This document shows, piece by piece, positions 7,169 to 20,066 of a stretch of 41,182 bases of DNA. The position numbers and the translations under genes are program-made. Source of the DNA: Melioribacteraceae bacterium (lineage in GTDB: Bacteria; Bacteroidota; Ignavibacteria; Ignavibacteriales; Melioribacteraceae); NCBI GenBank assembly GCA_021647785.1, contig JAKIUC010000041.1, positions 1 through 41,182 of the forward strand, written 5' to 3'. How positions within the stretch are numbered: the stretch's first letter is position 1; every line of letters starts with the position of its first letter. The notes below the pieces were generated by a model. The model saw only the letters and a program-made list of their open reading frames with translations. It did not search any database and had not been told where the DNA came from.

Positions 7169-8173
7169 ATTAAACCAAAAGTATCCATTATACTCCCTTT
7201 TTTTAATGCTGAGTTTACACTTGATAGAGCAATTAAAAGTATTGCTCAACAAAGTTATAGAGATTTTGAGTGCATTTTGATTAACAATAACTCAACAGAT
7301 AAAAGTTACACAATAGCAAAAAAATGGGTGGGAAAAGATGAACGATTTCTTATAACTACTGAAAAAAAGCAAGGAGTTGTCTTTGCTTCAAATAAAGGTT
7401 TTGAAATTACAAAGGGAAAATATGTTGCAAGAATGGATGCTGATGATGTTGCCTATCCAACAAGATTAAAAAGTCAAATTGATTTTTTGGATAACCACTC
7501 TGATTATGGTGCAGTTGCCGGTTTAGTGGAGTACATTCCGCACTCGGAATATACCGATGGATTTAAGCGTTATGTAAATTGGAGTAATTCAATAATTACT
7601 TACAAGGAACTGCTAAATAAACAGTTTGTTGAGATGCCTCTTATTAACCCCACAACAATGTGGCGTAAAGAGGTTGCTAATAAAATTGGAATGTACCGTA
7701 GCGGAGATTTTCCTGAAGATTATGAAATGTGGTTACGGTGGTTAAGCAAAGGAATTAAGATTGCAAAAATTCCGGAAATTGTTCTTAAATGGTACGACTC
7801 TGAAAAAAGACTTACACGCACAAACCCGATTTATTCGAACGAATCTTTTTTTAAAGTTAAAACAAAGTACCTTTCTAATTGGTTGAAAAAGAATAACCCT
7901 TTCCACCCCAATGTTGTTGTGTGGGGTGCAAGTAAAAATTCACGAAAACGTGCAAAGCCCTTATTTGATAACGGTGTTGAGATAGCTTATTATATTGATA
8001 TTAAGTTGAGAACAAATTTAGATAGAGAGGTAATTTATTACGAAAATATTTCAACCCCAAACGAGGTTTTTATTTTGGTATATATGAAGCAAGAAAATGC
8101 AAGGAATGAAATAGAAAGTTTTTTAAAGAGTCGTGGTTTTCTTGAAGGTGTTAATTATTTATTGGTTTCGTAG
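7169..8173 (+). CDS. Family 2 glycosyltransferase with non-ATG (ATT) start
   Basis: An inverting GT-A glycosyltransferase. From 7169 the frame reads x-KPKVSIILPFFNAEFTL, the classic nucleotide-sugar-binding start of GT2 enzymes. The DxD-type metal motif MDADDVAYPTRL and the acceptor-side FPEDYEMWLRW motif follow. The C-terminal ~90 residues form a Rossmann-like extra domain (NVVVWGASKNSRKRA ... IAYYIDIK ... SRGFLEGVNYLL). The first ATG is at 7277, but starting there would remove the first beta-strand and the nucleotide-binding loop. Upstream, the frame closes at TAA 7136-7138 with no ATG, GTG or TTG. ATT at 7169, behind AGGAG, is the best start; alternatively ATG mutated to ATT and the gene is crippled. 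The rest is intact at 334 codons. Acceptor unknown. It stands alone, not in a polysaccharide cluster. Confidence 0.75.
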   Translation: MKPKVSIILPFFNAEFTLDRAIKSIAQQSYRDFECILINNNSTDKSYTIAKKWVGKDERFLITTEKKQGVVFASNKGFEITKGKYVARMDADDVAYPTRLKSQIDFLDNHSDYGAVAGLVEYIPHSEYTDGFKRYVNWSNSIITYKELLNKQFVEMPLINPTTMWRKEVANKIGMYRSGDFPEDYEMWLRWLSKGIKIAKIPEIVLKWYDSEKRLTRTNPIYSNESFFKVKTKYLSNWLKKNNPFHPNVVVWGASKNSRKRAKPLFDNGVEIAYYIDIKLRTNLDREVIYYENISTPNEVFILVYMKQENARNEIESFLKSRGFLEGVNYLLVS

Positions 8174-8269
8174 TATAATTCTATAATGCACAAAAGTGCA
8201 AAGCTAAGGCTGAAGCAAAGAAAAAGCAGAATCTAATATTTCTTATTCTTCGCTGTGGCAAATAATATC

Positions 8270-8374
8270 TTAACAAAAAAAAACTACTCGTCCCGCCACT
8301 GTGGGGTAGGATTTAACCAACAATACTATTAAAAAGAAAACTACAATAATTGCAATATCAATTGGTTGGAACAT
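8270..8374 (-). pseudogene. N-terminal fragment of a sodium:solute symporter
   Basis: A 34-codon frame with a perfect AAAGGAG seven bases before its ATG. It begins MFQPIDIAIIVVFFLIVLL, a good match to the first transmembrane helix of sodium:solute symporter (SSS) proteins. The similarity ends at a degenerate CCCGCCACTGTGGGG hairpin (8284-8298) and the frame stops shortly after (TAA 8270-8272). I read it as the surviving 5' end of a deleted transporter gene, downstream of the broken sugar genes at 8430-9246. Confidence 0.55.
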
Positions 8375-8429
8375 TTTTTCTCCTTTGATTTTATTTTAGA
8401 ACATTGAATCAAGCAGCAAGATTTAAGTA

Positions 8430-8770
8430 TCAAGATTCTAAAATTCTAAGATTAGTAATTTCCAGTTCAGTAAGTTCTTCCAAATATCCTTTTACTAATG
8501 CTTCAAAAATATTTATACGCATTGTAACTTTTGAAATATCCTTTTCGTCCTCCTCAACCGGACTTGAGGATGTTCTAACCATATCTCCAAAATCATATAA
8601 AACAGTACCGGGCATCACCGTATCAAGGTCAATAACACATTGACCTTCGTTTGTTTTTTTACTCAACATCACGTTATTTATCTTTGTACCATTGTGTGTA
8701 ATTCGTATAGGAAGTTCTTTGTTCTTTAATAATTTTGTAATCTTTTCGGATAAATTCCTTTCGCTACTAA
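8430..8770 (-). pseudogene. Sugar kinase (phosphotransferase family) remnant
   Basis: A fragment of an aminoglycoside-phosphotransferase-fold kinase of the N-acetylhexosamine kinase type. The recognisable segment is ITHNGTKINNV ... CVIDLDTVMPGTVLYDFGDM, followed by EEDEKDISKVTMRINIFEAL. Family members have HND-T-K-x-N-N at the catalytic loop; here the catalytic Asp codon reads GGT (Gly). The N-terminal lobe (about 200 residues) and the C-terminal part are missing. Its 5' side overlaps, in another frame, the C-terminal remnant of a nucleotidyltransferase, as if a deletion joined two neighbouring genes. Not functional as it stands. Confidence 0.7.
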
Positions 8771-9246
8771 ATCAGAAATTCTTTTCTGTGCTATTGGTTT
8801 ATCTTCCGAGTAAGTTAAGCCAAACCAGTTTGCATTTGTTTCTAAAACTTTTACTTTTGCTTTTTCACTTTTTATTAAATTATCGATAACGGAAGGCAAA
8901 TAAAATTCTGCCTTAAGATTATCTCTATTCTCTTCAATAAATTTTTTGAATTTTTTTTGAAATGATTAAATACCAATGGGGTAAACGCAAACATATTCAT
9001 AGATACTATTTCATCTCCGGTAAATGATTGCCACTCTCCATTCTCATTCTTGAATTGTATGTTTGAATAAACACTGTTAATTTCAGTACGCTCGACAATT
9101 GAGGAGAAATATTTGCTGCTATCAATTGCACAAACACCACGAGAAACAGAACCATACTCCGATGAAGTATTTTTCATTTTATAACCAATCAATGCATATT
9201 CATTTTCCTTCTCTATCGAATTCAAAAAATCTGCTGCAGTTGAATA
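8726..9246 (-). pseudogene. Sugar nucleotidyltransferase remnant (frameshifted)
   Basis: This is the C-terminal half of an NTP_transferase-type sugar nucleotidyltransferase. The visible part reads AADFLNSIEKENEYALIGYK, then YGSVSRGVCAID, VERTEI, and EIVSMNMFAFTPLVF. A frameshift near the A/T homopolymers at 8941-8958 moves the match to another frame, continuing NRDNLKAEFYLPSVIDNLI ... NWFGLTYSEDKPIAQKRI and stopping at 8726. The N-terminal nucleotide-binding half is absent; a TAG at 9247-9249 bounds the remnant. With the kinase and symporter pieces it suggests a lost sugar-salvage operon. Confidence 0.75.
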
Positions 9247-9317
9247 CTAATCTCCATCTGATTCCAAAGATAATTAGTTGTATGCGATTTTCCGCTTTCG
9301 TTTCTTATTGCATCAAA

Positions 9318-10919
9318 CTAAATACTTCTAATAGTATCTCGCAAAACCCCTAATGCTCTCTGGCTTAGTAAATCAATTTTCATTAATCCTATATCTTCAA
9401 TCGAGTACATATCTAATTGGGTGATAATCATTCCAAGCCCTTTATTACTGGCATACTCTAATGCTGTATAATTGGTTATTGGTTCGGGTGTTATCACTAT
9501 GCCACTTGGATGAATACTTAAATGGTGCGGAAAACCATCTAATCTGGAGGCTAACTTTGTAATACTTATCCAGGGTTCATTAGAAAAATTTAAGTCTTTT
9601 GCTTCTGGAAATTTCTGCGAAAGTTTGTCGAGATTCTTTGCTGCTGTCCACGGAATGTACTTACTATATTTTGAAATCTCACGGTTTGGTATTCCAAATG
9701 CCTTAGCTGTTTCTCTAAAGGCAGAGCGTGCACGGAATGTAATTATTGTAGAAATCATAGCAACTTTTTCGTAGCCATATTTATCGAACACATACCTAAT
9801 CATTTCGTCTCGCTCCTTCCAAGAAAAATCGATATCAATATCTGGCGGACTTTTTCTTCCGCGATTCAAAAATCTTTCAAAGTACAAATTGTGTTTAATA
9901 GGATCTACTTGTGTAAAATCGAGAGCATAGGCAACCAAACTATCTGCTACAGAGCCTCTCCCAATTGTAATAATTCTACGCCGCTTTGCCTCCATTATAA
10001 TATCCCACACAATAAGAAAATAATTACTAAACCCAAGCTCATCAATAACATTAAGCTCATAATGCAGTCGTTGGTTTGCATGTGAAGCATTGGATGTAAT
10101 TTTCTTACTAAGCCCATGAAAAGCCAATTCAGATAGTATCGATTCAGCAGTTCTATTATTCGGTTTAATAAAATATGGAAATTTATATTTGCCGAACTCC
10201 AGATTAACATTACACTCTTCTGCAATATACTCGGCATTAAAAATTGCTTCCGGAATATTTTTCCAAACTTTTTTTAATTCACTTGAAGACTTAAAATAAA
10301 ATTCTTCATCTTCTAATTCTTCCTCATTTATATTTTCCATTGTGCTGTTTCTTCTTATTGAACTTACCAGTTTGTGCAAAGCATAATCTTCTTTCTTTTC
10401 AAAATATGTTGGATGTGATGCTATATATTTTATTCCATTCTCTTTAGAAAACTCATACAACTTACGAGTACTCTGTTTAGTTTTTTGGGTAACAATAAGC
10501 TCCGAGTAAAAATTTGGAAGAGTTTTAATTTTATCTTTTGCAGCCCTTATAAATTTTAACGAAGAGCTAATTAAAAACATGTTGGATAAATCTTCATCCA
10601 ATAATTTGATTAGATTAAAATCATCTTTTAACTTTCTTGATGTAATTACTTTGGTTAACTCTGCATACCCTTTATTATTGCGGGCAATACAAATAAGAGA
10701 ATATTTTTCGTTGTTCGGGTCATCAATTAAAGCACCAAGTATTGGTTTAATATTTTTTACTGCTGCTATTTTTGCAAACTGAATTAAACCATACATACCA
10801 TTGGTATCGGTGAGCGATGCATATTTACTTTTATTATCTACAGCAAGTTCTATTAATCGCTCAACAGTAATTGTTCCCTTAAGCAAAGAGTATGTAGAGT
10901 GTGTGTGCAACGAAAACAT
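9318..10919 (-). CDS. DnaE-type polymerase, N-terminal half (PHP + catalytic palm)
   Basis: A 533-residue protein equal to the first half of a bacterial replicative-type (C-family) DNA polymerase alpha subunit. The PHP domain (1 to ~210) begins MFSLHTHSTYSLL with metal-ligand-type His5 and His7 and contains LTDTNGMYGLIQFA. The polymerase part contains GRGSVADSLVAYAL (320-333), PPDIDIDF with the two catalytic-type aspartates (D362, D364), HHLSIHPSGIVI, and the third palm aspartate in MKIDLLSQRAL (D516). It then stops after 17 more residues; intact relatives continue for ~500 residues with fingers, HhH and OB domains. Those parts are encoded separately at 11280-12956, upstream on the same strand. 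The frame is free of stops although neighbouring genes are decaying. Its stop codon abuts the nucleotidyltransferase remnant. Confidence 0.9.
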   Translation of the reverse strand: MFSLHTHSTYSLLKGTITVERLIELAVDNKSKYASLTDTNGMYGLIQFAKIAAVKNIKPILGALIDDPNNEKYSLICIARNNKGYAELTKVITSRKLKDDFNLIKLLDEDLSNMFLISSSLKFIRAAKDKIKTLPNFYSELIVTQKTKQSTRKLYEFSKENGIKYIASHPTYFEKKEDYALHKLVSSIRRNSTMENINEEELEDEEFYFKSSSELKKVWKNIPEAIFNAEYIAEECNVNLEFGKYKFPYFIKPNNRTAESILSELAFHGLSKKITSNASHANQRLHYELNVIDELGFSNYFLIVWDIIMEAKRRRIITIGRGSVADSLVAYALDFTQVDPIKHNLYFERFLNRGRKSPPDIDIDFSWKERDEMIRYVFDKYGYEKVAMISTIITFRARSAFRETAKAFGIPNREISKYSKYIPWTAAKNLDKLSQKFPEAKDLNFSNEPWISITKLASRLDGFPHHLSIHPSGIVITPEPITNYTALEYASNKGLGMIITQLDMYSIEDIGLMKIDLLSQRALGVLRDTIRSI

Positions 10920-11279
10920 ATTTTAAAAACCTTTGTTTGATTTTGAAAAGAAATAATGAATCTCGAACACCGAATAAAGAATAACGAAGTACAAAACTTT
11001 GTTCGGTGTTCCTTGTTCAATATTCTTTATTCAGAATTCTATTTTATATTCTTGTATGTTAAAAACAAACATTCCACAGAATGTCTCTACGTCTTTTTTT
11101 CTTAATCTTAATTCTTAATCTATTATCTTACCCTTGTACATTACAAGCGAACATTCTAGCGAAATCTCTCTACATTCTTCTTCATCTTAATTCTTAATTT
11201 AAAGCAAAAAAGGAGTAAAAATTAAGAGCAAGATTAGGATTAAGAATTTGTACCTCAATCTTTTTCCAGACGCATCCCC
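10920..11279. repeat. Repeat-filled spacer between the two dnaE halves
   Basis: These 360 bases show no coding frame and no recognisable leftover of polymerase sequence. They contain an inverted pair of GAACACCGAATAAAGAATA-like sequences (around 10962-10985 and 11006-11033), and a diverged direct duplication of an ACATTC...TCTCTAC...CTTAATTCTTAAT block (about 11068-11121 and 11149-11201). A further inverted AATTAAGA/TCTTAATT tract lies near 11220-11250. The small dyad ACATTC-CACA-GAATGT at 11069-11084 is part of the first block. Such AT-rich degenerate intergenic repeats are common in this kind of genome. Confidence 0.55.
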
Positions 11280-12956
11280 TTAACCTGCATAAGCTCTTTT
11301 TAATTTCTCTTTCCCTAATGATTCTATAATCATAAATTCTTCATCATAAACTTTTTCACTCTCGCCATAATACTTGTTTTCTACACTATCCTTCTGAGCC
11401 ATTGTTGAAATTAATTTATCCGAGATTATGGCTAAGTTAGAAACAATAATATTATGCCCATCCTCGCTATCAATCCTTCCCATTATAAAATAAGGTCCCA
11501 TCGAAAGAGTTTTTTCTGCAAACTGTGCATAGACTTTAGGAAAAAGAACCGCTTCAAAAGTTCCAGTCAAATCCTCAAGCGATAGAAATTTCATAATCTC
11601 CCCTCTCTTTGTTTTTATCCGCTTGGATGCCATAAACCATCCAACCATCCTTACTTCTTTGCCTCGATACTTTGATATCTCTTTTGAACTGATAACTTTT
11701 TTGTTGTTGGTTAAATAACTAAAAAACTGAAGTGGATGACGAGAAACCATATAGCCAAATGCCTCTAACTCAATTGCACATATTTTTTCTATTGTGTATT
11801 CTACATCAGTTATAATTTCATTCTCTAATTTATACGACTCATACTGGAATAAATCGCCCATCATTATTTTATGACTGACTATATAAATATCCAACAGACG
11901 CATTAAAGTTGGACGAGTCTCTCCAAAACAACTCATAGCTCCTATCCTTATCAAAAGGGCTGCCTCTTTGTAGCTTAATTTTGTACGATAAATAAAATTA
12001 GAGAGTGAACTATATTTACCATTGCTATTCCTTTCTTCTATCACTCGCTCAATTGAACTACGCACAATGTTTTTTACTGCCATAAACCCAATCTGTATCT
12101 CTCCATTTTTTCCTACATATTCATACTGGCTTTTATTTATCTCTGGTAATAATATTCTTAATCCCATACGCTTACTTTCTTGAATGTAAACAGCGGCAGA
12201 GTAATACCCTCCTCTATTGTTAAGAACATTTGCCATAAACTGGGCAGGAAAGTGTACCTTCAAATATGCAACTTGGTAAGAGAGAATTGCAAAAGAAGCA
12301 CTATGGGCTTTGTTAAAAGCATAACCAGCAAACGATTCTATCTGTTTCCACAATGCTTTACTTACGTTATGAGAATAATTTTTCTTTTTACACAACACAA
12401 AAAATTTATCAGCAAGTTTTTTCATTTCGGTATGCGAACGCATTTTCCCACTCATTGCTCTGCGAAGTAAATCTGCCTCCTCCCACGAAAACCCCACAAC
12501 ATAATGTGCAATTTTTAATACGTCTTCCTGATAAATCATAATTCCGTAAGTTTCGCTAAGATGATCTTCCATTTCCGGAATTAAGTATTTACATCTATTT
12601 CGGTCTTTATGCCTCGCAATAAATTCTTGCATCATACCACTTTCGGCAACACCTGGACGAATAATTGAACTTGCCGCCGTTAACATTTCAAAAGTATCGC
12701 ACTTAAGTTTTTTAAGTAACGATCTCATACCTGGCGATTCGATGTAAAAACATCCAATTGTGTTTCCTGTACGGATTAGCTCCTTTGTTCTTTCATCATT
12801 AAAAAGCATCTCCTGGTCAAAAATATCAAAATCAATTTTTCCACTTTTTCTTGGTATTACTGCATGAATTTTCGGGATAATTTTATTCTTTGCTGAAAGG
12901 TTATAATCAGCCATATTTATTACATTAGTTGGCATATTTTTGGTCAATTTCATCAT
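11280..12956 (-). CDS. DnaE-type polymerase, C-terminal half (fingers, HhH, OB)
   Basis: A 558-residue protein equal to the second half of a C-family polymerase alpha subunit. After a poorly conserved ~45-residue start, residues ~65-85 read NTIGCFYIESPGMRSLLKKL. The matches continue with SSIIRPGVAESGM, ETYGIMIYQEDVLKIA, DLLRRAMSGKMRSH and YAFNKAHSASFAILSYQ (fingers region). A helix-hairpin-helix-like segment (FIYRTKLSYKEAALLIRIGA) and an OB-fold (EVRMVGWFMASKRIKTKRGE ... NIIVSNLAII) follow. It contains no PHP domain and no catalytic palm aspartates; these are in the gene at 9318-10919. The two proteins together cover a ~1050-1090-residue polymerase almost without gap or overlap. It starts at tandem ATGs directly behind an SOS-box-like dyad, so I infer damage-inducible expression like DnaE2/ImuC. 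Confidence 0.9.
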   Translation of the reverse strand: MMKLTKNMPTNVINMADYNLSAKNKIIPKIHAVIPRKSGKIDFDIFDQEMLFNDERTKELIRTGNTIGCFYIESPGMRSLLKKLKCDTFEMLTAASSIIRPGVAESGMMQEFIARHKDRNRCKYLIPEMEDHLSETYGIMIYQEDVLKIAHYVVGFSWEEADLLRRAMSGKMRSHTEMKKLADKFFVLCKKKNYSHNVSKALWKQIESFAGYAFNKAHSASFAILSYQVAYLKVHFPAQFMANVLNNRGGYYSAAVYIQESKRMGLRILLPEINKSQYEYVGKNGEIQIGFMAVKNIVRSSIERVIEERNSNGKYSSLSNFIYRTKLSYKEAALLIRIGAMSCFGETRPTLMRLLDIYIVSHKIMMGDLFQYESYKLENEIITDVEYTIEKICAIELEAFGYMVSRHPLQFFSYLTNNKKVISSKEISKYRGKEVRMVGWFMASKRIKTKRGEIMKFLSLEDLTGTFEAVLFPKVYAQFAEKTLSMGPYFIMGRIDSEDGHNIIVSNLAIISDKLISTMAQKDSVENKYYGESEKVYDEEFMIIESLGKEKLKRAYAG

Positions 12957-12960
12957 AATT

Positions 12961-12984
12961 TATAGTGAATAGATGTTCACTATA
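12961..12984. promoter_or_regulatory. LexA/SOS-box-like dyad upstream of split dnaE
   Basis: TATAGTGAA-TAGATG-TTCACTATA is a perfect 9+6+9 inverted repeat starting 5 bases upstream of the ATG at 12956. Read on the gene strand, its core GAACATCTATTC matches 10 of 12 positions of the B. subtilis-type LexA box form GAACATATGTTC. The LexA motif of this lineage is not known to me, so the identification is by resemblance and by the function of the downstream gene. Confidence 0.5.
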
Positions 12985-13325: not shown

Positions 13326-13412
13326 ATGTTACAGAAAAAAACCTTGGTTTTAATTATAGTAATTAGTATAATAGCAACTACTATAATAGCAGAAGGTATA
13401 AGCGATGAATAA
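13326..13412 (+). CDS. Possible 28-residue single-helix membrane peptide
   Basis: A short frame starting at ATG 13326 encodes MLQKKTLVLIIVISIIATTI followed by IAEGISDE. That is two lysines, a ~17-residue hydrophobic helix and an acidic tail. It ends 8 bases inside the ATPase frame (the ATPase ATG is 13405-13407, this stop is TAA 13410-13412), an overlap typical of translational coupling. I do not recognise the peptide. The regular lysine-helix-acidic layout argues for a real product, but AT-rich sequence makes hydrophobic short frames common by chance. Confidence 0.35.
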   Translation: MLQKKTLVLIIVISIIATTIIAEGISDE

Positions 13413-14525
13413 AAAAGAAAACCCTTTCTATTTTGGCAACGAAGTTTATGATAGCGATTTTTGTAACAGAACTGAAGAACTAAATGAATTACAAAAAGAT
13501 ATAAATAGCGGCATAAATGTTTTACTTTATGCTCCAAGAAGATTTGGGAAAACATCACTTCTGAAAAAATTACAAACAAAATTAGAAGGTGATAAAAATT
13601 ACACTTTTATTTACTTCGATTTTTTTTAGTTTCAGATATAGACGAATTTATTCAAAAATATTTTAATACAATTGCAAAATGTTTTGAAACTACACCGCAA
13701 AAGGTTTTAAATCTTTTTAAAACAACTTTGCAATTTCATCCAATTGTAAATATGACTTTAAGTTCAATGGGTGATGTTTCTTACAATTTATCAATAGTAA
13801 GAAAAGAGCAAAACAATACTTTAGAAGACGTACTAAATTTGCCATTTGTGTACGCAAAAAAGTTTAATAAAAAAGTGATTGTTGTTTTCGATGAATTTCA
13901 AGAAATTGAACAATTCTCTATTGAGAAAAAACTTAGAAGCGTAATTCAAACTCATAGCAGAAATGTATCGTATCTTTTTAGTGGAAGTAAAAATACAATT
14001 TTAACACAGATGTTTAATGATAACCAAAGGGCATTTTATAAATCTGTGAAGCATTTACACATTGAACAAATAGTGCAAAAAGATTGGGTAAAGTTTATTC
14101 AAAATAAATTTACTGAAACAAAGAAAAATATTGATATTAAGTATATCGAAACAGCATTTGAGATTACAAATGGATTCCCCTATTATATGCAGCAATTAAT
14201 GTATATGATTTGGGATAACACTACTAAGCATGTAAACAAAGGCATTGTAAATAATTCATTGAAAATTATGTTACAACGAGAATCTAATTTATATGAATTA
14301 ATTTGGACGAACTTAACGCCCAACCAAAAGAAAACCCTTAAATATATAATCTTAAATGATGGACAAAATATTTATAGCAATAACAACTTGAGTGAATCTT
14401 CAATTAGTGCTACTACTTTAAAAAGCACAATTGAAGCTCTTATTAAAAAAGATATTTGCGATAAAAAAGATAATAGATACTACCTTATAGACCCTTTTAT
14501 GAAATATTGGCTACAAAATATTTAA
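13405..14525 (+). pseudogene. AAA ATPase (archaeal-ATPase type) with frameshift at T8 run
   Basis: A STAND/archaeal-type ATPase of about 373 residues in two frames. The first (13405-13629) holds the N-terminal EELNELQKDI and the Walker A APRRFGKTSLL, and ends GAT TTT TTT TAG. A -1 shift at the run of eight T (13620-13627) continues as LVSDIDEFIQKYFN into the second frame. That frame holds Walker B (KKVIVVFDEFQEI), the sensor-like SYLFSGSKN, ITNGFPYYMQQLMYMIW, and a C-terminal winged-helix region ending DPFMKYWLQNI, as in this family. Everything else is intact, so this is a young disruption, a sequencing slip, or recoding at a U-UUU-UUU slippery site. The partner or target of such ATPases is generally unknown. 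Strand and gene neighbours do not tie it to the split polymerase. Confidence 0.75.
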
Positions 14526-15168: not shown

Positions 15169-15598
15169 GATGTCACAAGTTGGGCAGTTGCTACTCCTAA
15201 GTTCGCTTTTAGAGTAGAGGAAAGTCCGAACTCCAAAGAACAGAGTGCCGGGTAACCCCCGGGGGTTATAGGTGTAAACCTATAATTACGGAAAGTGCAA
15301 CAGAAAATATACTTTCTCGCCACGGCGGGATAAAGGTGAAATGGCAGGGTAAGAGCCTACCGCTTTGTTAGTAATAACAGAGGTCCGTTTAGGAGTCCCG
15401 ATTTATCGGGATCAGTGTAAACCCCACTTGGAGCAAGGTCATGTAAAGGACTCTTTGTATAGTTATATACAAAGCAAAGTTGTTCGCTTTGATGGTTCTG
15501 GGTAGATCGCTTGATTCTGATAGTAATATCAGAACTAGATAAATAATTGCCATCCCGCTTGCGGGATACAAAATTCGGCTTACAGACTTGTAACATCA
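15169..15598 (+). ncRNA. rnpB: RNase P RNA
   Basis: The catalytic RNA of ribonuclease P, which trims tRNA 5' leaders. The P1 helix is formed by GATGTCACAAGT (15169-15180) with ACTTGTAACATC (15587-15598). Universally conserved segments appear in order: GAGGAAAGTCCGAACTCC; AGAGTGCCGGGTAA; GGAAAGTGCAACAGAAA; GGTGAAATGGCAGGGTAAGA; AAACCCCACTTGGAGCAAGG; GGGTAGATCGCTTGA; and the 3' AAAATTCGGCTTACAG. At ~430 nt it has bacterial type A features and is slightly long. Two variable stems are built from CCCGATTTATCGGG (about 15397-15410) and ATCCCGC-TT-GCGGGAT (15553-15568), the same sequence type as dispersed intergenic hairpins here. recJ starts only 21 bases after P1. Confidence 0.95.
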
Positions 15599-15619: not shown

Positions 15620-17341
15620 ATGGTTGAAAAACGATGGACTCTCAAAGAAGCACAAGATGAACAAACTGTGCTTGCTTTAGCGGATAGTCTTAATATTTCT
15701 AATGTGTTAGCAACTATACTAATACTAAGAAATATTACAAACTTCCATGAAGCAAAGACCTACTTTAGACCTGAGTTAGACTCCCTTTACGATCCATTTT
15801 TAATGGATGGTATGCAAGAAGCCACCAATAGAGTAATTACTGCCATTACTAACAATGAAAAAATTGTAGTTTATGGTGATTATGATGTTGATGGAACTTC
15901 ATCCGCAGCACTACTATACCTCTTCCTCAAAGAATTAGATGCAGATGTTGAAGTTCATATTCCTAACAGACTTACTGATGGGTATGGGCTATCCATTGAA
16001 GCAATTGATATTCTATCCGAGAAAAAAACAGATTTAATTATAACTGTTGATTGCGGAATTACTGCGGTTGAAGAAGTTGCTCATGCTAATTCACTTGGTA
16101 TTGATACCATTATTAGTGACCACCATAAACCGAAGGAAGTAATTCCTGATGCTGTGGCTGTGTTAGACCCCATTAAACCTGGATGCAACTACCCTTACAA
16201 ATATCTTTCTGGTGCTGGTGTGGCTTTCAAACTTGCTCGTGCAGTTTCCGATAGAGTTGGACGTAAAGATGTTGTTTTAGAATATCTCGATTTAGTTGCA
16301 ATTGCCGCTGCTGCCGATATTGTACCACTTACAGATGAGAATAGAATTTTGGTGAAAAAGGGAATGGAAATGATTAACAAAAATCCAAGACCCGGAATTT
16401 TAGCATTAATGCACAAAGCAAAAAAGGAAGTTGGAAGTTTAACTGCCGGACAAGTGGTCTTTACAATTGCACCCCGTATAAACGCTGTTGGTAGAATGGG
16501 TGATGCAAAAAGAGCTGTTGATTTATTTGTTGAAGAAGATATGACCGAAGCAGAAAGAATTGCACAAATTCTTGAAGATGAGAACTATAAACGAAGAAAA
16601 ATTGATGAAATGACCTTTTCACATGCAATATCAATTATAGAAGAAGAAATAGATTTAGATAATGATGTTGCAATAATAGTTCATGTTGACGAATGGCACC
16701 CGGGAGTTATTGGAATTGTTGCTTCGAGAGTTGTTGAAAAATATTTCCGTCCGGCAATTATGCTCTCTACAATTGATGGAGTTGCTAAGGGTTCTGCACG
16801 AAGTATTTCCGGATTTAATATTTATGAAACACTTCAAGAATGTGATGATTTGTTAATCCAATTTGGCGGACACGAAGCTGCTGCCGGAGTTGCTTTAGAA
16901 ATAGAGAATATTTCTGAGTTCAGAAAAAAATTCAATACTCTTCTAAAAGAGAAAATGAAAGAAAAAAATATAGTTCCTGAGATTAAAATTGATGTCAAAA
17001 TTTCCCTTTCAGATATAACTCCTAAATTTGTAAGAATACTTGATCAGTTTGCTCCATTCGGTCCTGGTAATATGCGACCAGTATTTCTATCTGAAAATGT
17101 AAAATTAGCAAACCATCCCCGCATAGTAGGAAGAAACCATCTGCTCACCACATTAAAGCAAAATGGTGGCGATAAAGTATTTGATGCAATTGGGTTTAAT
17201 TTAGGATATTACTCGGAGGTTATTGCGAAAGATAGAGATTTAATAGATATTGTTTTTACAATAGAAAAAATTACTCGAAATGGGGTTTCTTATCCCCAAA
17301 TTAGATTAAAAGATATAAAAGTAAAAGAGAATGTTAATTAA
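15620..17341 (+). CDS. recJ: Single-stranded-DNA-specific exonuclease RecJ
   Basis: A 573-residue DHH-family 5'-3' exonuclease acting on single-stranded DNA in recombination (RecF pathway), base-excision and mismatch repair. The visible motifs are [10 protein letters not shown] (86-94; motif I, Mn-binding aspartates), TVDCGIT, SDHHKPK (DHH at 167-169), and [20 protein letters not shown], then [11 protein letters not shown] and [12 protein letters not shown] (DHHA1 domain), and a C-terminal OB-like region (GPGNMRPVF ... IGFN) follow. The length is normal for RecJ. The ATG lies 21 bases after the RNase P RNA with no obvious terminator between, so transcription may run through from rnpB. It heads a tight run with yebC, ruvC and ruvA. 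Confidence 0.96.
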
Positions 17342-17355
17342 TCATAGGTGTTCTT

Positions 17356-18081
17356 ATGTCAGGTCACTCCAAGTGGTCAACAATAAAAAGAAAGAAAGAG
17401 GCACTCGATCAAAAACGTGGCAAGATTTTTACAAAACTAATTAAAGAAATTACTGTTGCTGCCAAAGTTGCGGGTGGCGAGGTTGATAGTAATCCGAGAT
17501 TAAGATTAGCTGTGGACAACGCTAAATCTGCTAATATGCCCGCCGATAATATTACTAGAGCAATTAAAAAAGCTACTGGTGAATTAGAAGGTGTAACATT
17601 CTTAGAATTAATGTACGAAGGCTACGGTCCATCCGGAGTAGCGTTTATTGCCGAATGTTTAACCGATAATAAAAATAGAACTGTAGCCGAAGTTCGTCAC
17701 CTATTTACAAAGCACGGTAATGGTCTCGGAGAGACTGGCTCTGTAGCTTGGATGTTTGATAGAAAAGGTATTATTACCCTACCAATACAAGGGAAAGATG
17801 AAGATTTTATTTTCGAAATAATTCTTGAAGCTGGTGCTGACGATTTACAAACGGAAGAAGACTTCTATGAAGTTACAACTTCTGTTGATTCGTTTGAAAC
17901 TGTTCGCAAAGCTCTGGTTGATGTTGGTCTTAAAATAGAAAATGCCTCACTTCAATGGATTGCAAAAAACAGAATTGAAGTTGAAGGTGAAGATGCAGAA
18001 AAAGTAGAGAAACTTTTTGATACACTTGAAGATTGCGATGATGTACAAAGTGTTTATTCAAACGCTGATTTTAAAGAATAA
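17356..18081 (+). CDS. yebC: YebC/PmpR family protein (TACO1-like)
   Basis: 241 residues starting [20 protein letters not shown], the invariant opening of the YebC/TACO1 family. It continues with [16 protein letters not shown], the NARLR-like [20 protein letters not shown], and [20 protein letters not shown]. Family members are reported as transcriptional regulators or as factors easing ribosome stalling. Position next to ruvC and ruvA is widely conserved. It begins 14 bases after recJ and ends 18 bases before ruvC, so it is operonic. Nothing unusual in the sequence. Confidence 0.96.
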
Positions 18082-18099
18082 AAAACAACTACAATTAAA

Positions 18100-18636
18100 A
18101 TGATTATTATCGGAGTTGATCCTGGAACTATAATTACCGGTTTCGGGATACTTAAATATGAAAAAAATCAACTTAGTTACATTAACTCCGGTGTAATTAA
18201 AACTCCAAAAACAAAAGAGATTCCACCCCGCTTAGAAGTAATATATAACGAGTTAAATAGATTAATTAAATTCTATAATATATCCGACTTCGCCATAGAA
18301 ACAACATTCTTTAATAAAAATGTTCAATCTGTATTAAAGATTGGATATGTGCGTGGTGTCTCACTTCTTGCTGCTCAGCATAACAGACTTGAGATTGGCG
18401 AATACTCCCCTCGTGAAATTAAAAAATCTATTGTGGGAAATGGTGGAGCATCCAAAGAGCAAGTTCAATTTATGATTAAAAAATTACTTGCATTAAAAGA
18501 TGATTTTTCTACATTTGATGAAAGTGATGCATTAGCAATTGCAGCTTGTTATGCTTTCAAAAAAGATTCTCTATCACACAAAAGTGGAAGTTGGGAAAAA
18601 TTTGTTGAAGCAAATCCGGATAAAATAATTCAATAA
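18100..18636 (+). CDS. ruvC: Holliday junction resolvase RuvC
   Basis: A 178-residue endonuclease that cuts four-way DNA junctions together with RuvAB. The N-terminal IIIGVDPGTIITGFG carries catalytic Asp7. Glu67 lies in FAIETTFFNKNV, and the C-terminal acidic pair Asp140/Asp143 lies in FDESDALAIAAC, matching the D-E-D-D set of E. coli RuvC. YSPREIKKSIVGNGGASKEQ is also typical. Full length. ruvA follows after 6 bases. ruvB is not in this window. Confidence 0.96.
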   Translation: MIIIGVDPGTIITGFGILKYEKNQLSYINSGVIKTPKTKEIPPRLEVIYNELNRLIKFYNISDFAIETTFFNKNVQSVLKIGYVRGVSLLAAQHNRLEIGEYSPREIKKSIVGNGGASKEQVQFMIKKLLALKDDFSTFDESDALAIAACYAFKKDSLSHKSGSWEKFVEANPDKIIQ

Positions 18637-18642
18637 GGAGAA

Positions 18643-19239
18643 ATGATGATTGGATATTTAACAGGAAAAATAATTTCAAAAAAACCGACACAAATTATGC
18701 TTGATGTAAATGGCATTGGCTACATTATTAATATTACAATTTCAACATTTGAATCTTTACCGAAAAATGGTGATGAAGTAGTTTCACTTCACACATATTT
18801 GAATGTTCGTGAAGATGCATTAATACTCTTCGGGTTCTCTACACTGGCGGAGAAGGAGATGTTTGAACTTTTAATTGGTGTAAACGGAGTTGGACCAAAA
18901 TCAGCACAATCAATTTTATCCGGAATACAAATAGATGAACTACACACAGCATTGCGTAATAACGATTTAAGCAGATTAGTTGCAATACCCGGCATCGGTA
19001 AAAAATCTGGCGAAAGACTAATAATTGAATTGCGTGATAAAGTTGAAAAACTTTCCGATACTTTTGAAACAGCAATTGAGCCTAATTTTACAATTAGAAA
19101 AGATGCAATATTTGCCCTTACGCAGCTTGGGTATAATCAAAAAGTTTCTGAAAAAGCTGTGAGAAGTATTTTAGATTCCGAACCAGATTCAACTCTGGAG
19201 AATTTATTAAAAGACTCGCTGGCATTGCTTAATAAATAG
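18643..19239 (+). CDS. ruvA: Holliday junction branch migration subunit RuvA
   Basis: A 198-residue protein that tetramerises on Holliday junctions and loads RuvB. The OB-fold start MIGYLTGKIISKKPTQI, the helix-hairpin-helix motifs FELLIGVNGVGPKSAQSILS and LVAIPGIGKKSGERLIIEL, and a short C-terminal RuvB-contact domain (IFALTQLGYNQKVSEKAV) are all present. AAGGAG precedes tandem ATGs at 18643 and 18646; the second may be the real start, since most homologues begin MIG. Last gene of the rnpB-recJ-yebC-ruvC run; a hairpin follows. Confidence 0.96.
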   Translation: MMIGYLTGKIISKKPTQIMLDVNGIGYIINITISTFESLPKNGDEVVSLHTYLNVREDALILFGFSTLAEKEMFELLIGVNGVGPKSAQSILSGIQIDELHTALRNNDLSRLVAIPGIGKKSGERLIIELRDKVEKLSDTFETAIEPNFTIRKDAIFALTQLGYNQKVSEKAVRSILDSEPDSTLENLLKDSLALLNK

Positions 19240-19753: not shown

Positions 19754-20011
19754 ATGCAAATGAGAGAGAGTGCTTTCGAAAATCCAATTTCAGAATTAAT
19801 TAGTGATGAAATTTATTCATTATTAGTTAATAAAAATCTGATTAATGAAAAGAACCTAAGGGATTACAGAATTAAAAAACGGTTTAAGGAACTTCGAAAC
19901 AGTTCATTTAGTTCCACAGAAGCTATAGAAACAATTCGTGCAGACTATCCGTACTTACAATTTGATTCAATTAGAAAAATAATTTATTTGGGAAACAGGG
20001 TACGCTCGTAG
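19754..20011 (+). CDS. Small conserved-looking hypothetical, possibly helix-turn-helix
   Basis: 85 residues, starting MQMRESAFENPISEL (the second ATG at 19760 is an alternative start). It is charged and helical throughout. The C-terminal part, SSFSSTEAIETIRADYPYLQ then FDSIRKIIYLGNRVRS, has the spacing of a small helix-turn-helix of the kind in which a short turn precedes a recognition helix ending in basic residues. I do not know the family, and the DNA-binding idea is a guess from this pattern. A near-perfect 19-bp hairpin directly after the stop supports a real transcript. Confidence 0.55.
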   Translation: MQMRESAFENPISELISDEIYSLLVNKNLINEKNLRDYRIKKRFKELRNSSFSSTEAIETIRADYPYLQFDSIRKIIYLGNRVRS

Positions 20012-20019
20012 TGAATGTT

Positions 20020-20066
20020 AATTACTTAAGAGAATTAAAAAATTTAATTCTCCTAAGTAATTTTGC
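20020..20066. terminator. Strong hairpin terminator, probably bidirectional
   Basis: AATTACTTAAGAGAATTAA (20020-20038) pairs with TTAATTCTCCTAAGTAATT (20044-20062) with one mismatch and a 5-base loop. A T-rich stretch follows. It sits between the converging small gene at 19754 and the peptidase gene ending at 20149, so it can serve both. Confidence 0.7.

What the first reader, a model, noticed from the sequence alone, without database searches (positions are those of the whole stretch)
9318..12956. DNA polymerase alpha (DnaE type) split into two genes in swapped order
The N-terminal half (PHP domain, D362, D364, D516) and the C-terminal half (fingers, HhH, OB) are separate, fully open genes. 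The C-terminal half lies upstream of the N-terminal half on the coding strand, so no simple stop or frameshift explains it. The break falls just after the third catalytic Asp, unlike the cyanobacterial intein-split DnaE, and no intein sequence is visible. A tandem duplication with reciprocal loss of halves would give this order. Both frames stay open (533 and 558 codons) while neighbours are decaying, which suggests selection for a two-subunit polymerase.
Basis: partly seen in the sequence, partly recalled or inferred. Interest (0 to 1): 0.85.

Follow-up and report, generated by a model that had tools for sequence, protein, structure and literature searches.

The report
DNA-repair polymerase made as two proteins
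A group of little-studied bacteria (Ignavibacteriales and kin) carries an extra, damage-response type DNA polymerase whose active site is divided between two separate genes that most genomes keep as a pair even where they lie far apart, which suggests an enzyme that works only when two proteins meet, one of them apparently switched on by DNA damage.

Summary
The window (an Ignavibacteriales genome that also has a normal 1155-aa DnaE1) carries a second, DnaE2-type polymerase as two open genes: N half (PHP, palm, all three catalytic Asp) and C half (fingers, HhH, clamp-like motif, OB), broken in the palm-fingers linker. The split is old: of 391 class genomes 60 have both halves, 4 only N, 4 only C; a tree puts all 18 tested split enzymes in one clade among intact DnaE2. 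Gene order is free: of the 60, 32 have the halves on different contigs, 6 over 20 kb apart on one contig, 22 within 20 kb (divergent 9, N->C 7, C->N 3, convergent 3). Both halves are under purifying selection. No intein or intron was found. A LexA-type box precedes 37 of 47 C halves (and lexA itself in this genome) but 1 of 58 N halves. A DinB/PolY is the usual partner. Most likely: a two-subunit DnaE2B polymerase for lesion bypass whose C subunit is SOS-controlled. Assembly and activity are inferred, not shown. Eight library searches found no report of it.

The parts
9318..10919 (-). N-half gene: PHP + palm/thumb of a DnaE2-type polymerase, 533 aa, with all three catalytic Asp
   Evidence: AF2 model pLDDT 87 matches DnaE structures at TMq 0.82-0.88
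11280..12956 (-). C-half gene: fingers, HhH, clamp-motif-like DLF, OB, 558 aa, with a new N-terminal extension
   Evidence: AF2 model pLDDT 75.7 matches DnaE structures at TMq 0.48-0.65
12963..12982 (.). LexA-type palindrome (minus strand TAGTGAACATCTATTCACTA, 1 mismatch to the family pattern), 6 nt before the C-half ATG
   Evidence: the only other site with at most 1 mismatch in the 4.25-Mb genome is in front of lexA
9834..9836 (-). codon of catalytic Asp D362 (PPDIDIDF)
   Evidence: invariant in 27 of 27
9828..9830 (-). codon of catalytic Asp D364
   Evidence: invariant in 27 of 27
9372..9374 (-). codon of catalytic Asp D516 (KIDLLSQ); the N half ends 17 residues after it
10920..11279 (-). 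spacer between C half and N half, with an inverted repeat (GAACACCGAA...TTCGGTGTTC, seen by eye); the spacer is 2 nt in the closest relative G003
   Evidence: G003

Best explanation
The two genes encode the two subunits of a DnaE2B-type accessory DNA polymerase. The N subunit carries PHP, palm, thumb and the three catalytic aspartates; the C subunit carries the fingers that bind the incoming nucleotide, the HhH DNA grip, a clamp-binding-like motif and the OB fold. Neither can be a complete polymerase alone, so the working enzyme should be a non-covalent heterodimer joined at the palm-fingers boundary, helped by new terminal extensions on the C subunit (and on the N subunit in many species). 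It most likely does lesion-bypass synthesis with a RecA-binding DinB/PolY, as proposed in print for intact DnaE2B-PolY pairs. LexA represses the C-half gene, so DNA damage supplies the missing half. Shown here: the split, its age and single origin, co-retention, purifying selection, conserved catalytic residues, a LexA-type box. Inferred: heterodimer, activity, lesion bypass, LexA binding.
For: Complementary domains. Catalytic Asp invariant in 27 of 27 N halves. 141 of 586 columns invariant in 28 C halves, including L369-F370 of a DLF motif that aligns with the DLF of E. coli alpha (that this is its clamp motif is recalled). Both halves in 60 of 391 class genomes, N only 4, C only 4, Fisher p about 1e-60, not corrected for relatedness, although the genes are over 20 kb apart on one contig in 6 and on different contigs in 32. 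dN/dS (NG86): window vs G003 N 0.117/1.373, C 0.170/1.364, DinB 0.141/1.007, DnaE1 0.078/1.362; closest pair N 0.008/0.322, C 0.012/0.309. The window breaks 0 of 83 columns invariant in the other 26 N and 4 of 145 in the other 27 C (range over members 0-8 and 0-6). One clade of 18 split among 34 intact, SH-aLRT 100. Box with 2 or fewer mismatches: C 37 of 47, N 1 of 58, DinB 7 of 33; shuffles 0.4, 0.5, 1.1%. Genome scans: a box at C in 9 of 9 relatives (by coordinates) and in the own genome, at lexA in 7 of 9 and in the own genome. PolY found in 32 of 39 genomes, 30 of the 31 with the split enzyme; in intact relatives it lies directly before dnaE2 in L136, L137 and L166-L169, and close by in L130 and L131. 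Extra terminal residues: Asp to FxESxGM is 50-52 aa in the 4 intact enzymes (of 34) that my expression measured, against N tail 18-50 plus C lead 47-134.
Against: Eight class genomes keep one half only, also at E 0.001, apart from C fragments in G049; these assemblies are 92-99% complete in 120-450 contigs, so gaps are possible but not proven. Among the 60 pairs, G025 has a C half lacking about residues 235-364, and a few halves are cut over contigs (G011, G015, G103, G032). The closest relative G003 has an in-frame stop in its C half. The own genome has a decayed second N copy. N and C distances correlate only at r = 0.53 over 18 genomes. The number of boxes per genome is no higher than that of the reversed control pattern (own 2 vs 3); only position is significant. 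Ten of 47 C genes lack a box at 2 or fewer mismatches: the four from family f13 (three at 5, one at 3), L242 at 3, and L070, L234, L235, L236 and L079 at 4-5 (L079 being G003, read from an internal start; its true upstream is cut by the contig). G017 has the split enzyme but no PolY match; G002 and G008 have the PolY without it. The complex was not modelled: the tool takes single chains.
Confidence: 0.77

Rival explanations
1. The halves are retained for separate jobs: for example the C half as a clamp- and DNA-binding regulator under SOS, the N half as a PHP/palm protein of another kind, no longer forming one enzyme.
For: Eight of the 68 class genomes with any half carry one only; N-C distance correlation only 0.53; the two differ in upstream boxes.
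Against: Catalytic Asp and many fingers residues are invariant; 60 of 68 keep both, often without close linkage; no further domain family recurs in the members: only PHP and DNA_pol3_alpha in 27 N halves; finger and HHH_6 in 28 of 28 and OB in 27 of 28 C halves, other weak hits in 1-5 members.
Confidence: 0.12
2. The two products are joined after transcription or synthesis (split intein, trans-splicing intron) into one chain.
For: Cyanobacterial DnaE is a precedent (PMC3919608 and PMC6390638, passages).
Against: No intein or Hint family among Pfam hits of 27 N and 28 C proteins; N tails are 18-50 residues and C leads mostly 47-80, which is short for split-intein halves (their sizes recalled); no intron RNA in the window or in six related loci.
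Confidence: 0.03
3. In this particular genome the pair is on its way to decay, a relic of a system that works in relatives.
For: Decaying neighbours, a decayed extra N copy on another contig, the stop in G003, a LexA box with one mismatch, 4 of 145 conserved C columns broken, among the higher counts of the 28.
Against: Both frames open; 0 of 83 conserved N columns broken; dN/dS 0.085 and 0.125 against G003.
Confidence: 0.07
4. Recent local tandem duplication of dnaE with reciprocal loss of halves, or a misassembly.
For: C->N order in this window.
Against: The same split in dozens of independent assemblies, in five single-contig ones with the halves 0.48-3.3 Mb apart along the record; single old origin; the C locus beside recJ in G001 and G004 without N.
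Confidence: 0.01

Closest known systems
Intact DnaE2B-PolY(-RecA) systems of Bacteroidetes (PMC12926913, and the Cellulophaga algicola system in PMC6511836; passages read)
   Same: DnaE2-type polymerase linked to an active Y-family polymerase with a RecA-NT-like tail; the split clade lies among intact DnaE2 in the tree; PolY before dnaE2 in intact relatives.
   Different: There the polymerase is one chain (1008-1050 aa in most relatives fetched here); here two genes, often not adjacent, with the LexA-type box at the C half and rarely at the N half.
Cyanobacterial split DnaE with split intein
   Same: A C-family polymerase encoded by two separate genes.
   Different: That one is joined by protein trans-splicing (PMC6390638, passage citing Wu 1998 and Caspi 2003); here an accessory DnaE2 beside an intact DnaE1, a break in the palm-fingers linker, and no intein found.
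Split PolB of Methanobacteriales (Kelman 1999) and trans-spliced split PolB of Nanoarchaeum (both as cited in PMC4104785, passage read)
   Same: A DNA polymerase in two polypeptides.
   Different: Unrelated B family, archaeal; proposed there to stem from an intein.
ImuA-ImuB-DnaE2 mutasome
   Same: LexA-controlled DnaE2 working with a Y-family protein.
   Different: Single-chain DnaE2A with ImuA and ImuB; those two were not searched for in this genome.

Membership tests
C-family DNA polymerase, DnaE | PHP, palm with three Asp, fingers, HhH, OB | tested here: met
   (all present, but on two chains; OB below the Pfam cut-off in the window protein)
C-family DNA polymerase, DnaE | one continuous polypeptide | tested here: not met
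DnaE2 | extra copy beside a DnaE1, no C-terminal tau-binding domain, incomplete PHP site | tested here: met
   DnaE1 of 1155 aa; the C half ends within 76 residues of the OB match; TDH of Taq DnaE reads TDT in the profile (alignment)
DnaE2 | phylogenetic placement with DnaE2 | tested here: inconclusive
   groups with 34 intact relatives away from 2 DnaE1, but no named DnaE2A/B/X reference sequences were in the tree
DnaE2B-PolY-RecA | PolY partner with RecA-NT-like tail | tested here: met
   IMS domains in the own-genome DinB, neighbourhood or co-occurrence; the tail motif was read by eye, not scored
DnaE2B-PolY-RecA | no imuA/imuB in the genome | not tested
   no search made
LexA/SOS regulon member | operator shared with lexA upstream of the gene | tested here: met
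   for the C half; not met for 57 of 58 N halves within 200 bp
Cyanobacterial split DnaE | intein halves at the new termini | tested here: not met
Two-subunit polymerase | physical complex with activity | not testable with these tools
   single-chain structure prediction only

The most novel reading that the evidence does not exclude
A mutagenic polymerase controlled by assembly: the catalytic (N) subunit is made outside LexA control, in some species right behind a purD-like gene, and only the LexA-repressed fingers/clamp (C) subunit is induced by DNA damage, so SOS completes the active site by delivering its missing half, an AND-type safety lock on error-prone synthesis that a single-chain DnaE2 cannot have.
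Probability: 0.35. Interest if true: 0.86.

Novelty: new variant of a known kind. Interest (0 to 1): 0.76.

Why it matters
A C-family polymerase naturally divided at the palm-fingers boundary and kept so in at least four families (f1, f2, f3, f13) would show that the bacterial polymerase fold can work as two chains, give a natural split-polymerase tool, and make a clear question testable: does dividing the active site give tighter SOS control of mutagenesis? Surveys that look for single-chain DnaE2 may miscount such genomes (inference).

Tried and rejected
Recent tandem duplication and misassembly: rejected on distribution, tree and synteny. Intein, group II intron: nothing found. Phage or plasmid origin: C half against phages, N half against plasmids and phages gave only matches under 60% identity (listed ones 23-37%); not a near source; C against plasmids was not run. 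Co-evolution by distance matrices: r = 0.53, not corrected for the species tree, weak. Structure of the complex: not run, the predictor takes one chain and no altered sequence. Calling the box significant from genome counts alone: rejected, because the reversed control pattern occurs about as often; only position counts. The ancestral N locus in the own genome was not found: contig C83 carries a decayed N copy, but its neighbours do not cluster with those of the N loci of G001/G004.
Full report
WHAT IS THERE. Window 9318-10919(-) and 11280-12956(-) are open genes of 533 and 558 aa. Together they cover a DnaE once: N half to profile position 569 of TIGR00594, C half from 563. Against solved structures the profile of N halves matches E. 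coli alpha to residue 575 and that of C halves from 591: the linker between palm and fingers. AF2 models of each half match DnaE structures best. The own genome also has an intact DnaE1 of 1155 aa and a decayed second copy of part of the N half on contig C83.

THE SPLIT IS OLD AND SHARED. Of 39 genomes (own and 38 relatives) 31 have N halves (open frames 530-592 aa, or contig-cut pieces in G011 and G015) and separate C halves; the other 8 (G002, G005, G008, G009, G010, G012, G020, G030) have neither. In 391 genomes of the class, after leaving out 4 of 68 N genomes and 21 of 85 C genomes that carry intact-type enzymes, 64 have N and 64 have C: 60 both, 4 N only, 4 C only. One of the 60, G025, has a C half lacking about residues 235-364; a few are cut over contigs. 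The eight single ones stayed single at E 0.001, apart from C fragments in G049. Of 392 genomes of the phylum, 32 matched N at E 1e-85: 27 of the own order with split genes, four of one other family (f38) with 1019-1029-aa frames, and one (f32) with a 1172-aa frame. Named records place the split in MAGs called Ignavibacteriaceae, Melioribacteraceae, Ignavibacteriota, Bacteroidetes, Chlorobiota and, once, Cloacimonadota: 18 of the 80 best loci are split (L149-L165 and the fragment L216); of the rest, those whose frame could be read whole are intact, three gave no match and several are cut by contig ends. The nearest intact ones are from KSB1, Aminicenantes, Zixibacteria and an uncultured MAG (L166-L169), 41-47% (N) and 47-52% (C) identical, each after a DinB gene. 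A quick IQ-TREE of 18 split (halves joined), 34 intact and 2 DnaE1 puts all split in one clade with SH-aLRT 100; its sister group is not firmly resolved.

ORDER IS NOT CONSERVED. Of the 60, 32 have the halves on different contigs (not proof of distance), 6 on one contig more than 20 kb apart (five of them single-contig assemblies, 0.48-3.3 Mb along the record), 22 within 20 kb: divergent 9, N->C 7, C->N 3, convergent 3. In the same genus, G001 and G004 have C beside recJ-yebC-ruvC-ruvA, as the window has (there with an ATPase gene between), with N on another contig; the RNase P RNA lies there too in the window and in G004. G003 has C->N with a 2-nt gap. So the adjacency is probably a later event of this lineage.

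SELECTION. NG86: window vs G003 N dN/dS 0.085, C 0.125, DinB 0.14, DnaE1 0.057, with dS 1.0-1.4, near saturation. Closer pairs: N 0.008/0.322 and C 0.012/0.309 (L234/L070); N 0.059/0.698 (L155/L066) and C 0.037/0.429 (L233/L080). G003 has one in-frame stop in its C half, a point against, in the window's nearest relative.

REGULATION. Most C halves start just after a palindrome like TAGTGnnCAAATGTnCACTA. Scored on distinct genes (200 bp upstream and 60 bp into the frame): at most 2 mismatches in C 37 of 47, N 1 of 58 (that one lies between divergent N and C), DinB 7 of 33; shuffled sequences 0.4, 0.5 and 1.1%. The ten C genes without are named under evidence against. In the own genome only two places match with at most one mismatch: before the C half and before a LexA with its DNA-binding and S24 domains. 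In nine relatives a box lies at C in 9 of 9 (five checked on fetched loci, four by coordinates) and at lexA in 7 of 9; for G024 and G035 no lexA site was identified, two of their sites each not being fetched. By coordinates, no box lies on the upstream side of N in 8 of 9; in G147 the box is in the C / DinB-N divergent region. The number of boxes per genome (3-5) is not above the reversed control (0-15).

PARTNER. A DinB/PolY (cluster c3) is in 10 of the 41 stretches compared, next to N or one gene away, and a DUF72 gene (c6, one member checked) in 8. PolY was found in 32 of 39 genomes: 30 of the 31 with the split enzyme (not G017) and two without it, G002 and G008. Its tail carries QExLF-like and RKKMLRAVTKIRDKYGY-like segments in most of 33, read by eye as a clamp motif (recalled) and as the RecA-NT motif of PMC6511836 (passages read). 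PMC12926913 (passages) describes a DnaE2B-PolY-RecA group in Bacteroidetes; the split enzyme fits it except for being split, with absence of imuA/imuB not tested. In L067, L068, L069 and L095 N follows a purD-like gene (named by eye).

NEW TERMINI. Between the third Asp and FxESxGM the four intact enzymes (of 34) that matched my expression have 50-52 residues; 58 split N halves have 18-50 from the Asp on, and 46 C halves 47-134 before that motif (start codons not verified). The C lead holds a recurrent DMxxYxLP-like segment. These may be docking parts; that is inference. In G116 (family f22) an otherwise intact relative has one in-frame stop in the same linker, a possible sight of how such a split can begin, or a sequence error.

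MECHANISM. Two chains, palm and fingers, must meet to form the site; the C chain brings the clamp-like motif; PolY and RecA probably join. LexA control of the C gene means damage raises the C chain. Physical assembly, activity and lesion bypass are not shown here.

LITERATURE. Searches (open-access PMC set; listings seen) showed no report of an intein-free split DnaE2. [quoted passage not shown] PMC6390638 (passages) describes a frame-split DnaE with an intein in Desulfonema. PMC4104785 (passage) describes split archaeal PolB. PMC8565304 (passages) describes other SOS motifs in Bacteroidetes.

Noticed in passing
L085 (own genome C83) 7853-8390: Decayed second N-half copy, 94% and 92% DNA identity to window 9753-10177 and 9314-9431 with an internal deletion; overlapping its start lies a 241-bp stretch 83% like window 19826-20062.
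   Followed up: partly
window 15172-15598 (+) and 15620-19239 (+): RNase P class A RNA just before a recJ-yebC-ruvC-ruvA cluster; the C half of the split polymerase keeps this neighbourhood in two same-genus genomes.
   Followed up: partly
window about 13400-14525 (+): ATPase (weak ATPase_2/AAA_14 matches) read in two frames, apparently frameshifted near 13620.
   Followed up: no
window about 8300-9250 (-): Remnants of a sugar nucleotidyltransferase-like and a kinase-like gene (named by eye) with stops in all frames.
   Followed up: no
L079 65-1741 (G003): C half of the closest relative has an in-frame TGA near its start (62nd codon of the frame read).
   Followed up: partly
L132 1146-4265 (-) (G116, family f22): Intact-type DnaE2 with a single in-frame TAG in the same palm-fingers linker, giving 553- and 477-aa frames 24 nt apart.
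   Followed up: partly
L118, L119 (family f13): Split halves in N->C order with two or three opposite-strand genes between them (and one same-strand gene in L118); C halves there lack a clear LexA box.
   Followed up: partly
L126-L129, L134, L135: Intact DnaE2 of family f4 follows a very large gene (at least 860 to 1390 aa, cut by the stretch ends) instead of DinB; identity not looked up.
   Followed up: no
G025 C11:112290-113696: C half with an in-frame lack of about residues 235-364 while its N half is whole.
   Followed up: no
window N half against PHROGs: Some phage DnaE families end or begin near residue 355-359 of the N half, suggesting phage DnaE genes broken at another point.
   Followed up: no
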